A DNA stretch of 50,859 bases, taken from the NCBI GenBank assembly GCA_944324175.1, contig CALUVH010000013.1, positions 1 to 50,859 on the forward strand, in the 5' to 3' direction. Below are positions 45,139-50,859 of this stretch, in pieces; positions within the stretch are counted from its first letter, which is position 1; each line of letters begins with the position of its first letter. The DNA comes from Candidatus Gastranaerophilales bacterium. GTDB taxonomy: Bacteria > Cyanobacteriota > Vampirovibrionia > Gastranaerophilales > Gastranaerophilaceae. The position numbers were made by a program, and so were the translations under genes. The notes under the pieces were generated by a model. It was not told the origin of the DNA. It saw nothing but the letters and a program-made list of their open reading frames with translations, and did not search any database.

Positions 45139-46743
45139 TTATTTTATTTGATTATACATTGTATTTAGAATTTTTAATTTCTGGGCAATTTCAGGATTAG
45201 ATAAGAAAGTATTTAATTCAGAGCGAATAAAGTCAGTTAATTCATAGCTATAAGCAGCAGATTTTAAATTTCCGTTAACTTCAAGCATTTCACAAATTGA
45301 TTTTGAAACTAATGTCATAAAATCAGTATATTGTAATGTTTTTCTATCAATAAATAATCCATCATATTTTTTATTGTCAATTAAAGCATGAAATGGTGTA
45401 TTGTTACTATTTTTGGCATCAAATATATATTCATACTTACCATTAATATTAGGTAATGTGCCACAGATATCATGTTGAGCAAAAATTTCTAATGCTTCTC
45501 TAAGTAGTCTAAGTTTTTGAATTTCAACATCTGTTGGTTTTAAAGAATGAGGCATATGCTCTAACTTATAGACTTCATCAGCACTTTTCATTCCTATGTT
45601 TTTGCATTCACTATGTGCAAATTTATAACCTTGTGCAGTAAGATACTCTTCAACTTCACTTTTAAGCAAAGAATAATCTCCAAATTTATAACTAGGTACC
45701 CAAACTATTTTAGAGTCCGTAAAATCAATTTTTAAATTTCTATTATTTGCTTCACTTATCAAACCTCTCGCAAATGCCATAGTCTGATCTTTATTATCAT
45801 TGATTAATTTAGGATCATTAATATTTTTTGATGATAAAACAGGTTCCAAAGAAGCTATTGCTTGTACCAATTCTTCATTACTCATTGATTTAGCATAATA
45901 GTTACTTAAAACGTACATTTGATCATAATCTATAGCCATACGATCGCGCCCTGAATCTAGTATTGGATAAGATTTAGCTATTTTTTTCAATTCAGGATCT
46001 TCAATAGAAGTCTTGAACATAACTGTTAAATTGTTTAAACCTCCACTCATTTTACCATCCTGATTTTCATATCTTTGGACATAGTAAATATTGCCTTTGT
46101 AATCATCATTTTCATTAACTTTGAAAGCAAAATACTTATTTTCAAAAGTTGGATTTTGAAAATCTTTATTGTAAGGGTGCCAGAAGTAGTCTTTTGCCTC
46201 TAAAATTGTTGTAATTAAGTTTTTATCTTTTGTTTTAAATTCAATATAATTACCTTGTATTGTTTCTGGATTTTGAGACAATTTTTGAGTCATATCAGCG
46301 GTTTGAATATCATCTGAGGATCTTCCAAAAGTCATTTTCCAATCCCCACAACCGTATTCAACATATGGAGTATCAAGTTTTGATAAAAGATTTACGGCAA
46401 CAATACGAGTTCCTTCTCCGAATGCACCGGCATTTTTACTATTTCCATCTTTTGTACTGTCACCTAAAGATTCAAGATGTGAGTAGTCGTAATGACCATC
46501 ACCGGTTATTCTAACTTTATAAGAGCCGTCAGCTTCCGGGATAATTTCTACTCCGACTCCTTCCATTGTATGTCCGTTGCCATCATAAAAGTTTTGCATG
46601 ATGTCACGTGCAATTTTGTTATTACTCCAGTTGGTCTTAGCTCCGTATCGAATTTTAATACGTGCATTTTCAATTTTATCCAATTTAGGGATGTCATTTT
46701 CATGAATTATTGGTGTTTCAGTTCTTGTAGGATTTAATCCACC
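45139..46743 (-). repeat. Module 2 of the giant protein (ATPase plus decayed HExxH)
   Basis: Begins at GGLNPTRTETPIIH and ends at KILNTMYNQIK at the C-terminus. The ATPase motifs are kept, but the position of WIHEISH is LVSKSICE, so the putative zinc ligands are lost. Boundaries are approximate. Confidence 0.8.
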
Positions 46744-49700
46744 TGTGTCAGGGATTTTAAATTTTATAGTCTTACCTTCATCAAATAAAACTCTAGAATA
46801 ATCTTGTGCGGAAGGTAAAGAAAGTCCTTGTACAGGTGTTTGATTTGCAGGTAATTTTTCATATTTATATTCGGTAAAGCTTTTTGAGGTTTGTCTCAGA
46901 CTTTTTTGAGTTAAGGATTTAATTTTACTAATAAATTCTTTTAAGATTACTTTAGGTGTCCTGTGTGCAATAAGATTACTAAATTGTTTATTTGCTTTAA
47001 AATCGGCAATTGTAGATTTTATGGTACGTGTTGCTTTTGAAGAAGGTGTATTTGTATTTGAGTCTTGTATTTTTTCAACATATTCTTTATATTCAAAAGG
47101 TGAGTTCATCTTTTGTTTTATTTCATTGCTATATTCACTTTCAACGAAATTACTTTTACCATCTGTTTTTTTGTTGTTGTATAAATCAGCTAATACTTGC
47201 ATTTTTTGTAGTGTTTCCGGACTATAAGTAAGTAATTCCATAATATATTTTTGAATATCAGCAAGTCGCATACTAAATGATGTAGAAGTATCTCCACCTG
47301 TTTTGTGAGAAATTTCATGAATCCATGTAGCTAAATTCTGAACATAATCTCCTAAAATTAATGAACTCGATTTTGTCCAGTGTCCGAGATATTGACCAGT
47401 ACTTGACAAAATTGCTTCTGCAGCTTCATTTGGACAACCGCCTTCATCAAAGACCAATGTCGGTTTTTGGACATCTGTTTTAGTAATAAAATCTTTACTA
47501 TCGAGGTCTGCATTTTCTTGAAGTAATTTTATGCCTTCATCTAAAAGATAAATTCTTCTTTCTGCTTCTGCTGAAAGTTTAATCGGTTTTTTTGCACCTT
47601 CGCTGAAGTTATTGAATGATTGCATTCCAACTTTTTTCATGCAAGGCTGAGCAATTTTATATCCCATTAGACGAGCCATTTCTCTATCTTCAAAAGAAGC
47701 TTTATCATCAAGCCATACATATTTTTGAGAAGTAAAATCAATGCCAATTTTTCGTTTCTGACATTCAGTTAAAAATGCATCAAGAATTATAGTGTTTTGC
47801 TTATTCACTTTTTGATCAGGTTTTATGCTCCACAAATGTTCCAATGATGCAACTGTCTGCGTAAGTTCTTTATCAGACATAGTTTGCAAATACCGGCTTA
47901 AAAGCCCGTAAATTTGATATTGACTTAGTTTTACTCTATCTCTACCGGTGTTTAGATTATATTCTTCACCGTCGTTAATTTTTACAAGTTCAGGATCATT
48001 AGGCATTTTTTTGAAAACAAGACTTAATCCAGGGACTCCATTATCAATTTGCCCATCTACTTCGTATCTTTGTACAATATATAAATTACCCTTTTCACCA
48101 TCAGGTAAAGTTTTAAAGCCAAAAAATTCATTTTCATAGTCAAAATTTCTAAAATCTTCATTTTTAGGTTGATAGAAAAAGTCTTTCGAATTAAGAATTT
48201 CTTTTACAAGGCTCTCATTACTTGTTTCAAATTCAATGTAATTACCTTTAACAGTTTGTGAATTTTTAGAAAGAGTTTGTGTCATATCAGCAGTTTTGAT
48301 ATCGTCACTTGACTTACCGAATTTCATGGACCAATCCCCACAAGCGTAGGTGATGGATGGTGTATTTTTAGCAAGCAAGTTAACGGCTACAATTCTTGTA
48401 CCTTCTCCGAATGCACCCGCATTAGTACTGTCACCGTTTTTGGTACTATCGCCAAGTGATTCAAGATGTGAGTAATCGTAGTGCCCTTCGCCACTTATTT
48501 TAACTTTATAATTTCCATTATCAGTTTTTACAACATCGATTTTAACGCCTTCTAAAGTATGTCCGTTTCCATCATAGAAATTTTGCATAATATCTCGGGC
48601 AATTTTTACATCACTCCAATTTGTCTTAGCACCATATTTAATTTTTATATGCGCATTTTCTACAACGTCAAGACGTTCAAAATCCTCAGGATGAATTATT
48701 GGTTTTTCAGAACGAGTAGGATTTAATCCCCCTTCATTTTCAATAAATAATGAGACTTTCTTTTCTTTTTTTAGTTGTTTCATTAATTCGCTTGTAGAAG
48801 GCAATTTTTCAAATTCTATGCTTTCTTTTTTGGGAAATTTGCTAAAAGGTAAAACAGTTTGAGGTTTATAAGAGCCGATGTTGCCCATTGTCCGCATAAG
48901 TTCACGAGTATTAGTTGCACTTAATGCTTCTTGTATGTCAGATTCTTTATATTTTAATGGTTGTGATGATTCAGCTTTTATTTTTTCGCGGTATGCGTTA
49001 ATATCAACTGTTGTGCTGGTTCTTTCTTTAATAGGGGTAGTCATTTTTTGATATTCGACCTCTGGCATATCAAGAAGTTCTTTCCAAGAGTTGAAATTTA
49101 AAAATTTCACATTGTATGCTCTTAAAGCGGCTCTGGAATTAAAAATTTCTTTTTTCTTGAAAAACTCTTCATCACTGCATAATAAAAATTCAGAAATTAT
49201 GTCACAACGATCTTTTAAATTATCCCCAACTAAGTCAAGAATATGTCTTTTTGATAAAAGAGAATAGTCAAATTTTACAGTATCAGCTGCTTTTTCTTTA
49301 GATGAATTTTGAACAATAATATTTCTGACGATATTTAATTCTTGGATTGATAGTTTAGGAGCAATATTTTTTTCAAAATTGTCCATTATTGTATTGATAT
49401 TAATAGCATCATCATTTAGTTGGTTGTTACTTTTTGCACAGTCAATTACCCAACGAATATCACTTATTGCTCTATTTTTTTCGTCGCAGTTAATTTTAAT
49501 AATGCTTTGAGCCTGTCTTAAAAGGTTGCTATTTTCGGAATATTTATCACTTTTGTGAAAGTTAAAAATTTTATATTTTTCAATAAATGAATTTAATACA
49601 GCTTTTTCTTGTTCAGTTAAATTGACATCTTTATCAATACGAATGAATTGAATAATTTCGTCCTCATTATCAGCCCATTTTTTTATTTGTTCAATTTCTT

Positions 49701-50859
49701 CTTTAGGCATTTTTGAAAGAATTATGTCTTGTATATTTTTTGCTTGTCTTAAATATTTTTCTTCTTCTGATATAGAATATTCACCTGATTTAACTTTTTG
49801 TAAGATTTCCGATTTATTTTCTTCAGATACTGATTTTAATACTTTTGATATTTCATTTTCAGGGAAATAAGGATCTTCTTGTATAGCTTTTCCTACATCA
49901 AAATTAGTTTCATTGATTTGATATAAAATTCTCCAATCTAGGTTTTTCAACTCATCTAAATTCTTTTGTAGGAATTCTTTGCTAACTTTTTGAGAATTTC
50001 CTTTTTCATTGAGTTTTATTAATAAAGAATGAATGGTAGGTATTGGGATTTTTTTGTCCAATAATTCATATGCAAAGTCTAGATTTTCTTTTGTTACATT
50101 TTGCAGAAGGCTTGTTACATTTTCTTTTGGTAAAGAATTTTTTACAAAATGATTATACATTTCAATTTTAGCCGGTACATCTTGATTTTTTATATCGGTA
50201 AATAAAAAAGCACTAAATTCATTTTCATTGATTAATTCTTTATCATGTTTTAGCGCATTATATAATTTTTTTATACCATCTACGTCACTTCTAGCTACAT
50301 TTACAACAATTTTAGCAATATATTCATCATTCAAATCTTTTTCTTTACTGAAAAAGTCTAATAAATCTTTCATTTTATCAATATTTTGAGCATCTATTTT
50401 GCTCATTACATCGCCAATGCCGTAGCCTCCAAGTTTTTCAGGATTTTCAGAAAACAGTTTGTATACTTCCATTTTAGCTTGAAGTTCTTTGTAGTCAGAA
50501 ATGTCTTTGAAAGCATCTATATAATATTTTAAGTCGTTTTTATAGTCAGGTGAATTTTCTAGAATTTCTATAAATTCATTTTTCATCTGTTCAAATTTTT
50601 CAGGTGAAATAGTTTCATTATTGGAAGAATTATTTTTTGATATGTTTGTATCAGTTTCTTTTAATATAATATTTTCATTATCGGATGATACTTTTGCAGG
50701 TGACGGCATTTCTGTATCGGTAGAATTATCAGTAGTTAGCCTATCGTTAGGTATAACTTCATTATTTGTATTATTTTTGTTATTTTTAACTCTGATTTTA
50801 CCCTCAGAGATATCATCCATAGTTTTAAGAATATTTTGAGCCTGCTCGCGTGTAACGCC
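45139..50859 (-). CDS. Giant tandem GHKL-ATPase / HExxH-motif protein (5' end outside window)
   Basis: The open frame runs off the right edge: the 13 codons before the Met at 50820 are open and no ribosome binding site precedes that Met. At least 1906 residues are visible. Numbering from the Met: about 1-50 is a disordered Asn/Ser/Thr-rich part, 50-640 is helical, perhaps repeated. Module 1 has a GHKL ATPase (N-box ARDIMQNFYDG near 741, ISGEGHYDY near 774, LGDSTK near 787, GAFGEGTRIVAV near 801) and then a region with WIHEISHKTGGD (His1168, Glu1169, His1172). Module 2 repeats this order (ATPase near 1403-1473), but the peptidase-like motif has become SKSICEML near 1840. This may be an ATP-driven clamp joined to a metallopeptidase. 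There is no visible export signal and no recognised partner gene. Confidence 0.85.
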   Translation of the reverse strand, partial: GVTREQAQNILKTMDDISEGKIRVKNNKNNTNNEVIPNDRLTTDNSTDTEMPSPAKVSSDNENIILKETDTNISKNNSSNNETISPEKFEQMKNEFIEILENSPDYKNDLKYYIDAFKDISDYKELQAKMEVYKLFSENPEKLGGYGIGDVMSKIDAQNIDKMKDLLDFFSKEKDLNDEYIAKIVVNVARSDVDGIKKLYNALKHDKELINENEFSAFLFTDIKNQDVPAKIEMYNHFVKNSLPKENVTSLLQNVTKENLDFAYELLDKKIPIPTIHSLLIKLNEKGNSQKVSKEFLQKNLDELKNLDWRILYQINETNFDVGKAIQEDPYFPENEISKVLKSVSEENKSEILQKVKSGEYSISEEEKYLRQAKNIQDIILSKMPKEEIEQIKKWADNEDEIIQFIRIDKDVNLTEQEKAVLNSFIEKYKIFNFHKSDKYSENSNLLRQAQSIIKINCDEKNRAISDIRWVIDCAKSNNQLNDDAININTIMDNFEKNIAPKLSIQELNIVRNIIVQNSSKEKAADTVKFDYSLLSKRHILDLVGDNLKDRCDIISEFLLCSDEEFFKKKEIFNSRAALRAYNVKFLNFNSWKELLDMPEVEYQKMTTPIKERTSTTVDINAYREKIKAESSQPLKYKESDIQEALSATNTRELMRTMGNIGSYKPQTVLPFSKFPKKESIEFEKLPSTSELMKQLKKEKKVSLFIENEGGLNPTRSEKPIIHPEDFERLDVVENAHIKIKYGAKTNWSDVKIARDIMQNFYDGNGHTLEGVKIDVVKTDNGNYKVKISGEGHYDYSHLESLGDSTKNGDSTNAGAFGEGTRIVAVNLLAKNTPSITYACGDWSMKFGKSSDDIKTADMTQTLSKNSQTVKGNYIEFETSNESLVKEILNSKDFFYQPKNEDFRNFDYENEFFGFKTLPDGEKGNLYIVQRYEVDGQIDNGVPGLSLVFKKMPNDPELVKINDGEEYNLNTGRDRVKLSQYQIYGLLSRYLQTMSDKELTQTVASLEHLWSIKPDQKVNKQNTIILDAFLTECQKRKIGIDFTSQKYVWLDDKASFEDREMARLMGYKIAQPCMKKVGMQSFNNFSEGAKKPIKLSAEAERRIYLLDEGIKLLQENADLDSKDFITKTDVQKPTLVFDEGGCPNEAAEAILSSTGQYLGHWTKSSSLILGDYVQNLATWIHEISHKTGGDTSTSFSMRLADIQKYIMELLTYSPETLQKMQVLADLYNNKKTDGKSNFVESEYSNEIKQKMNSPFEYKEYVEKIQDSNTNTPSSKATRTIKSTIADFKANKQFSNLIAHRTPKVILKEFISKIKSLTQKSLRQTSKSFTEYKYEKLPANQTPVQGLSLPSAQDYSRVLFDEGKTIKFKIPDTGGLNPTRTETPIIHENDIPKLDKIENARIKIRYGAKTNWSNNKIARDIMQNFYDGNGHTMEGVGVEIIPEADGSYKVRITGDGHYDYSHLESLGDSTKDGNSKNAGAFGEGTRIVAVNLLSKLDTPYVEYGCGDWKMTFGRSSDDIQTADMTQKLSQNPETIQGNYIEFKTKDKNLITTILEAKDYFWHPYNKDFQNPTFENKYFAFKVNENDDYKGNIYYVQRYENQDGKMSGGLNNLTVMFKTSIEDPELKKIAKSYPILDSGRDRMAIDYDQMYVLSNYYAKSMSNEELVQAIASLEPVLSSKNINDPKLINDNKDQTMAFARGLISEANNRNLKIDFTDSKIVWVPSYKFGDYSLLKSEVEEYLTAQGYKFAHSECKNIGMKSADEVYKLEHMPHSLKPTDVEIQKLRLLREALEIFAQHDICGTLPNINGKYEYIFDAKNSNNTPFHALIDNKKYDGLFIDRKTLQYTDFMTLVSKSICEMLEVNGNLKSAAYSYELTDFIRSELNTFLSNPEIAQKLKILNTMYNQIK
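47175..48733 (-). repeat. Module 1 of the giant protein (ATPase plus intact HExxH)
   Basis: Begins at GGLNPTRSEKPIIH and ends at QVLADLYNNK. It aligns throughout with module 2, including DNA stretches such as CCTTCTCCGAATGCACC, which is identical in both. Boundaries are approximate. Confidence 0.8.

What the first reader, a model, noticed from the sequence alone, without database searches (positions are those of the whole stretch)
45139..50859. Giant protein with two GHKL-ATPase modules, one joined to an intact HExxH motif
One open frame of more than 1900 residues carries a long helical N-terminal part, then two copies of a Bergerat-type ATPase (ARDIMQNFYDG, LGDSTK, GAFGEGTR) each followed by a metallopeptidase-like segment. 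The STK and GEGTR boxes recall Hsp90, MutL and MORC ATPases, which act as ATP-gated clamps. A clamp duplicated in one chain could dimerise with itself, and the HEISHKTGG segment could cleave whatever is held. I know of no characterised bacterial system with this exact tandem order. It is the best candidate in this window for an undescribed machine, such as an effector, chaperone-protease or conflict system. The function is inference.
Basis: partly seen in the sequence, partly recalled or inferred. Interest (0 to 1): 0.85.

Follow-up and report, generated by a model that had tools for sequence, protein, structure and literature searches.

The report
Swappable giant protein with ATP-clamp protease
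A gut bacterium related to cyanobacteria carries the tail end of a giant mosaic protein whose swappable last part is a pair of ATP-driven clamps, one joined to an intact metal-dependent protein cutter and the other to a dead copy, which points to an undescribed family of interchangeable bacterial effectors.

Summary
An open frame of 1906 residues (45139-50859, minus strand) runs off its contig, so the start is missing. It carries two related modules (44% identical), each a GHKL ATPase with transducer domain followed by a metallopeptidase-like tail. In all 17 tandem proteins compared, the first tail keeps HExxH...D and the second has lost it. Both modules are under strong purifying selection. 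The predicted structure matches Hsp90/TRAP1, topoisomerase VI and gyrase B. The same GHKL-plus-HExxH pairing occurs in small phage proteins of unknown function, so the module itself is not unique. Relatives lie in gut Gastranaerophilales, as membrane-anchored single-module proteins and as tandem giants up to 4355 residues.

The main new point lies outside the coordinates. The missing N-terminal header is duplicated in this genome: contig ends share exactly 77 identical bases in pairs, and a second giant continues from the same header into a different C-terminus with an HD domain. Similar headers in other genomes carry other payloads (HD; related giants RelA/SpoT-like, GNAT), often followed by one conserved ~143-residue gene. 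Best reading: a polymorphic giant effector whose payload is a single-chain ATP-gated clamp protease. The architecture is shown; the function is inferred.

The parts
45139..50859 (-). giant protein gene, 1906 codons present, 5' end cut by the contig end
50783..50859 (-). 77 bases identical to the left end of contig C26 (second giant); the tail of the duplicated N-terminal header
48748..50859 (-). N-terminal part as present: end of header, low-complexity linker, then a helical-looking region (residues 1-704); less conserved (dN/dS 0.24)
47593..48747 (-). module 1 GHKL ATPase + transducer (residues 705-1089); N-box RDIMQNFYDG, G2 box GAFGEGT, transducer motif GRDR
   Evidence: dN/dS 0.06
48568..48594 (-). 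module 1 N-box DIMQNFYDG (residues 756-764)
47173..47592 (-). module 1 metallopeptidase-like tail, intact motif (residues 1090-1229)
47290..47319 (-). HEISHKTGGD: HExxH plus invariant Asp (residues 1181-1190)
46759..47172 (-). linker between modules (residues 1230-1367), dN/dS 0.28, low predicted confidence
45559..46758 (-). module 2 GHKL ATPase + transducer (residues 1368-1767)
   Evidence: dN/dS 0.075
46579..46605 (-). module 2 N-box DIMQNFYDG (residues 1419-1427)
45142..45558 (-). module 2 pseudo-peptidase tail (residues 1768-1906): HExxH lost, still under selection (dN/dS 0.12)

Best explanation
This is the C-terminal three quarters of a giant mosaic protein from a gut Gastranaerophilales bacterium. 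Such proteins join a shared N-terminal header (a short N-terminal region and a moderately hydrophobic Ala/Gly-rich segment) and a helical middle to an exchangeable C-terminal payload, in the manner of polymorphic effectors. Here the payload is a tandem of two GHKL ATPases. I propose that the two ATPases pair within one chain as an Hsp90- or topoisomerase-like ATP-gated clamp. The first carries a zincin-type protease that cuts what the clamp holds; the second carries a catalytically dead copy that serves as a structural or substrate-binding half. Shown: gene structure, homology, module boundaries, motif retention and loss, selection, fold prediction of the ATPase part, and header/payload exchange. 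Inferred: zinc binding and proteolysis, ATP hydrolysis, cis pairing, export, and the conflict or effector role.
For: GHKL fold: AlphaFold2 model pLDDT 84.5, with PDB matches to TRAP1 (E 1.8e-7), topoisomerase VI-B and GyrB, and VIA-align Z about 11 over residues 39-320. phrog_6077 hits both window modules (E 1.2e-6 and 3.2e-4), and a phage-contig member hits HATPase_c at E 0.002. Motifs: the N-box D and N, GxxGEG and the second Arg of RDR are conserved in M1, M2 and single-module proteins; HExxH plus Asp is 17/17 in M1, 0/17 in M2 and 10/11 in single rows, the exception being an M2-like fragment. One origin of the dead tail: the peptidase-half tree separates M2 (99/93) from M1 plus single-module proteins. 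The ATPase halves of the same proteins intermingle and are 29-57% identical within a protein against 18-28% for the tails, which suggests concerted evolution of the two clamps. Payload exchange: contig ends C13/C26 and C3/C24 each share exactly 77 bases, and C26 continues into a different C-terminus with an HD domain. Full-length headers 62-85% identical carry GHKL-free payloads in G025, G179, G049, G065 and G036. Related giants carry RelA/SpoT-like and GNAT domains. L045 and L046 share N- and C-termini but differ in the middle. A conserved ~143-aa gene follows 28-63 bp downstream of a dozen giants with different payloads. Purifying selection: dN/dS 0.06-0.12.
Against: No delivery system was identified: no VirB4-type protein, no tail sheath in this genome, only an isolated FHIPEP-like protein, and no strong transmembrane helix in most giants. 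No immunity gene was identified; the window's giant lacks the ~143-aa downstream gene. The G1 Asp of GHKL ATPases is missing in the whole family and the usual Glu general-base position is Asp, so ATP use may be altered. The peptidase tail has no family or PDB sequence match. Membrane-anchored single-module relatives suggest the module also has an ordinary intracellular role.
Confidence: 0.5

Rival explanations
1. Intracellular defence or counter-defence protein: the GHKL clamp senses phage infection or foreign molecules and switches on the attached protease, as GHKL is proposed to control the nuclease in the Shedu-type VcSduA.
For: Closest small homologues are phage proteins (phrog_6077) and the structure search lists many RIIA proteins; T4 RIIA orthologues are counted as counter-defence ATPases with variable C-termini (PMC7824862). 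A GHKL-nuclease fusion defends against phage (PMC12137116). The distribution is patchy, 59 of 286 genomes.
Against: No PADLOC match. No defence genes were noticed beside the giants listed. The shared header with HD, RelA/SpoT-like and GNAT payloads looks more like a polymorphic effector system.
Confidence: 0.22
2. Housekeeping or stress membrane protease: the single-module proteins act as a GHKL counterpart of FtsH (membrane anchor + ATPase + HExxH), and the giants are elaborations with the same quality-control role.
For: 8 of 9 complete single-module proteins of the order that were checked have a predicted membrane segment near the N-terminus, and such proteins occur in many genomes of the family.
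Against: Most genomes of the order lack it, unlike a housekeeping protease. Giants swap payloads and lack the N-terminal anchor.
Confidence: 0.15
3. Polyvalent protein of a mobile element: a multidomain protein injected with phage or conjugative DNA to protect it.
For: Multidomain proteins with 2 to 15 domains are typical of that class (abstract of PMC5512222; not read in full). One relative lies on a contig classed as viral (L061).
Against: No phage or conjugation genes were noticed near the window's giant or the relatives listed. L061 looks like an assembly join between a sheath gene and an HD payload. No match for a single-module member in 50,697 phage records.
Confidence: 0.08
4. Decayed gene or chance motifs.
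For: The second HExxH is lost, and the N-terminus is cut.
Against: dN/dS 0.06-0.12 in both modules, no internal stops, many homologues; the cut is a contig end that looks caused by a repeat.
Confidence: 0.02

Closest known systems
phrog_6077 phage 'histidine kinase-like ATPase' / 'RIIA lysis inhibitor' proteins (about 355-450 aa, function unknown)
   Same: GHKL ATPase with an RDR-type motif; in the IMG/VR and Moorella phage members a C-terminal HExxH(K) tail
   Different: single short module, no header, no tandem; several members lack HExxH; low identity, 23% for the one phage-contig match
T4 RIIA and its orthologues
   Same: N-terminal GHKL ATPase fused to a variable C-terminus (PMC7824862); structural matches
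   Different: no HExxH-bearing tandem shown; homology beyond the GHKL domain not shown
Hsp90/TRAP1, topoisomerase VI-B, GyrB, MORC ATPases
   Same: GHKL + transducer fold, Z about 10-11
   Different: about 10% identity; G1 Asp absent; peptidase tail; two copies in one chain
FtsH (membrane-anchored AAA+ HExxH protease)
   Same: analogous plan in the single-module relatives: membrane anchor, ATPase, HExxH
   Different: GHKL rather than AAA+; no homology claimed; comparison from general knowledge
Polymorphic toxin systems (PMC3482391)
   Same: shared N-terminal part joined to exchangeable enzymatic C-termini, downstream small gene
   Different: the small gene is conserved across payloads, so it looks more like a chaperone or adaptor than an immunity protein; delivery route unknown; header matches no known one
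VcSduA (Shedu with GHKL N-terminus, PMC12137116)
   Same: GHKL ATPase proposed to control a C-terminal effector enzyme
   Different: nuclease instead of a zincin-like tail; one ATPase per chain, modelled as a dimer

Membership tests
GHKL ATPase superfamily | Bergerat fold with transducer domain | tested here: met
   AF2 pLDDT 84.5; TRAP1 E 1.8e-7; Z about 11
GHKL ATPase superfamily | N-box Asn | tested here: met
   N in 45/45 module rows
GHKL ATPase superfamily | G1 box DxGxG with adenine-contacting Asp | tested here: not met
   I, V or L at that place in all 45 rows; several phage relatives carry N or S there too. Fold, N-box and G2 box still place it in the superfamily as a divergent branch.
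GHKL ATPase superfamily | G2 glycine-rich lid box | tested here: met
   GxxGEG invariant
GHKL ATPase superfamily | ATP binding and hydrolysis | not testable with these tools
   needs purified protein
phrog_6077 phage ATPases | profile match | tested here: met
   window modules E 1.2e-6 and 3.2e-4 over profile positions 14-109 only; Caenarcanales relative E 4.7e-7
T4 RIIA | sequence homology over the full RIIA protein | tested here: inconclusive
   fold matches only, about 9-15% identity
Zincin metallopeptidase | HExxH on a helix with a further conserved ligand candidate | tested here: met
   HExxH falls in helix 474-489 of the model; H, E, H and D invariant in M1
Zincin metallopeptidase | match to a known peptidase family or fold | tested here: inconclusive
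   no Pfam, NCBIfam or PDB sequence match above threshold; the peptidase part was not folded alone
Zincin metallopeptidase | proteolytic activity | not testable with these tools
   needs purified protein
Polymorphic toxin/effector | common N-terminus with different C-terminal payloads | tested here: met
Polymorphic toxin/effector | payload-specific immunity gene | tested here: inconclusive
   a ~143-aa gene follows a dozen giants but is conserved across payloads and absent beside the window's gene
Polymorphic toxin/effector | known export route | tested here: inconclusive
   no VirB4, no tail sheath, lone FHIPEP-like protein in this genome; other systems not searched
PADLOC defence systems | profile match | tested here: not met
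   only DpdC at E 0.15

The most novel reading that the evidence does not exclude
Gastranaerophilales possess an undescribed class of giant polymorphic effectors, one of whose payloads is a new machine: a single-chain, internally paired GHKL clamp with one live and one dead zincin tail, an ATP-gated protease unrelated to AAA+ proteases.
Probability: 0.35. Interest if true: 0.85.

Novelty: new variant of a known kind. Interest (0 to 1): 0.64.

Why it matters
If true, it would show ATP-driven proteolysis built on a GHKL clamp rather than an AAA+ ring, with an asymmetric live/dead protease pair fixed in one chain. It would also reveal a family of very large exchangeable effectors in a common but poorly studied lineage of animal-gut bacteria, with a downstream partner gene that can be tested. 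And it offers a function to test for the unexplained GHKL-HExxH proteins of phages.

Tried and rejected
Pfam, NCBIfam, PADLOC and PDB sequence searches of the whole window protein: nothing significant. tblastn of a single-module member against 50,697 phage records: none. An N-terminal F-x-G motif that seemed to recur in these genomes was not clearly enriched (48 of 933 proteins at residues 6-55 against 36 at 61-110), so it was dropped. Delivery by a phage-tail-like system: the sheath family is in 10 of 78 family genomes but not in this one, and the one giant next to a sheath gene (L061) looks like an assembly join. A type III export apparatus: the FHIPEP hit is an isolated 491-aa protein without neighbouring export genes. 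Cis pairing from the tandem model: no inter-domain error or coordinates available. No metallopeptidase fold was listed among the structure matches, which lie mostly in the ATPase part, so this says nothing for or against the peptidase fold. Papers on giant toxins or effectors of this lineage: none found among the titles and abstracts of the searches run.

Full report
Observation. The reverse-strand frame 45139-50859 is open for 1906 codons and runs to the window's edge. The window is the complete contig C13 of its genome, so the protein is cut by the assembly. Relatives with named records are mostly Candidatus Gastranaerophilales (Melainabacteria) from animal guts, and the window's genome belongs to the same family group. 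The two modules are 44% identical to each other.

What the modules are. The whole protein has no significant match in Pfam, NCBIfam, PADLOC or the PDB by sequence. A model of module 1 built on 31 relatives has pLDDT 84.5. It matches TRAP1, topoisomerase VI-B and GyrB by Foldseek, with VIA-align Z about 11 over the ATPase and transducer. The viral library gives a 437-aa protein first (E 3.8e-15) and then many RIIA proteins. By sequence, a Caenarcanales relative hits phage family phrog_6077 (E 4.7e-7), and that family hits both window modules (E 1.2e-6 and 3.2e-4). A phage-contig member (435 aa) hits HATPase_c (E 0.002) and ends in a tail with HEYSHKVGGD. A Moorella phage protein has HETLHKYSGARDCTREFE. 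GHKL plus C-terminal HExxH is therefore an existing, uncharacterised pairing.

Residues. Across 17 M1, 17 M2 and 11 rows labelled single-module, the N-box Asn, an Asp at the usual Glu general-base position, GxxGEG and the second Arg of RDR are kept throughout. The usual G1 Asp is I, V or L everywhere. HExxH and the following Asp are kept in 17/17 M1, 0/17 M2 and 10/11 single rows; the exception, L030, groups with M2 sequences in the tree and is probably a fragment of a tandem protein. The assignment of these motif positions to Hsp90 roles is mine, from general knowledge of the superfamily.

Evolution. The tree of the peptidase half puts all M2 tails on one side of a branch (99/93) and M1 with the single-module proteins on the other, so the dead tail most likely arose once. 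The tree of the ATPase half mixes M1 and M2 of the same proteins, and the ATPase halves are more alike within a protein (29-57%) than the tails (18-28%). This fits gene conversion or co-adaptation of the two ATPases and indirectly favours pairing in one chain; unequal rates could contribute. Between the window and its closest relative, dN/dS is 0.06 and 0.07 in module 1, 0.075 and 0.12 in module 2, 0.28 in the linker and 0.24 in the N-terminal part.

Distribution. Matches occur in 59 of 286 genomes of the order and thin out in the class. Single-module proteins of about 700-890 aa usually have a predicted membrane segment near the N-terminus. Tandem giants run to 4355 aa. A genome of another family in the class has a 1060-aa protein with two GHKL-like parts and a C-terminal EEKAHQLSGASDATRE.

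The header and payload exchange. Searching this genome with the first 673 residues of the closest complete relative finds its start on contig ends C3 and C24 and its end on contig ends C13 (the window) and C26. C13 and C26 share exactly 77 bases at their ends, and so do C3 and C24. This is the pattern of a two-copy repeat that a k-mer assembler could not resolve (my interpretation). C26 continues into a 2069-aa frame without GHKL modules that holds an HD domain. Full-length headers 62-85% identical occur in five other genomes on giants of 2136-2361 aa whose genomes gave no GHKL match. More distant headers are joined to RelA/SpoT-like, GNAT and other C-termini. L045 and L046 share ends but differ in the middle. 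A ~143-aa gene lies 28-63 bp downstream of a dozen giants with unlike payloads, including three GHKL giants (L040, L041, L117), but not beside the window's gene. A separate short N-terminal motif marks many giants; the profile was built from some of those sequences, but it also found others, always at the N-terminus.

Mechanism. I propose that ATP closes the paired GHKL domains on a substrate, presenting it to the live zincin-type tail while the dead tail supports or binds. Precedents are RIIA (GHKL plus variable C-terminus, counter-defence; PMC7824862) and VcSduA (GHKL proposed to control an effector nuclease; PMC12137116). The effector role rests on the header and payload exchange. No export route was found, and this is the weakest step.

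Verdict. The module type is not unique, but the tandem live/dead arrangement and its place in a mosaic family of giants were not described in any paper the searches brought up.

Noticed in passing
L157:1-6210 (contig C26 of the window's genome): A second giant sharing the header continues into a different C-terminus with an HD domain and a region that looks kinase-like by eye.
   Followed up: partly
L160:3827-6676 (contig C7 of the window's genome): A 949-aa protein with a related header and a C-terminus that looks RelA/SpoT-like by eye (no Pfam match for this copy; relatives L204 and L205 do match weakly).
   Followed up: partly
L040:14194-14625, L194:1846-2286, L195:4236-4667, L205:2117-2548 and others: A conserved ~143-aa family immediately downstream of giants with different payloads; a candidate chaperone or adaptor.
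   Followed up: partly
L213:12663-14138 (contig C3 of the window's genome): An isolated 491-aa protein matching only the second half of FHIPEP (FlhA/SctV), with no export genes around it.
   Followed up: partly
L141:6752-9934: A 1060-aa protein with two GHKL-like parts and a C-terminal HExxH-like remnant (EEKAHQLSGASDATRE), in another family of the class.
   Followed up: no
L061:304-2479: A tail-sheath frame overlaps an HD-payload frame on a contig classed as viral; probably an assembly join.
   Followed up: partly
L045:4378-14052 and L046:3368-13279: Two giants with near-identical N- and C-termini but a GNAT-like domain in one and an HEFVH peptidase-like motif in the other at the same place.
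   Followed up: partly
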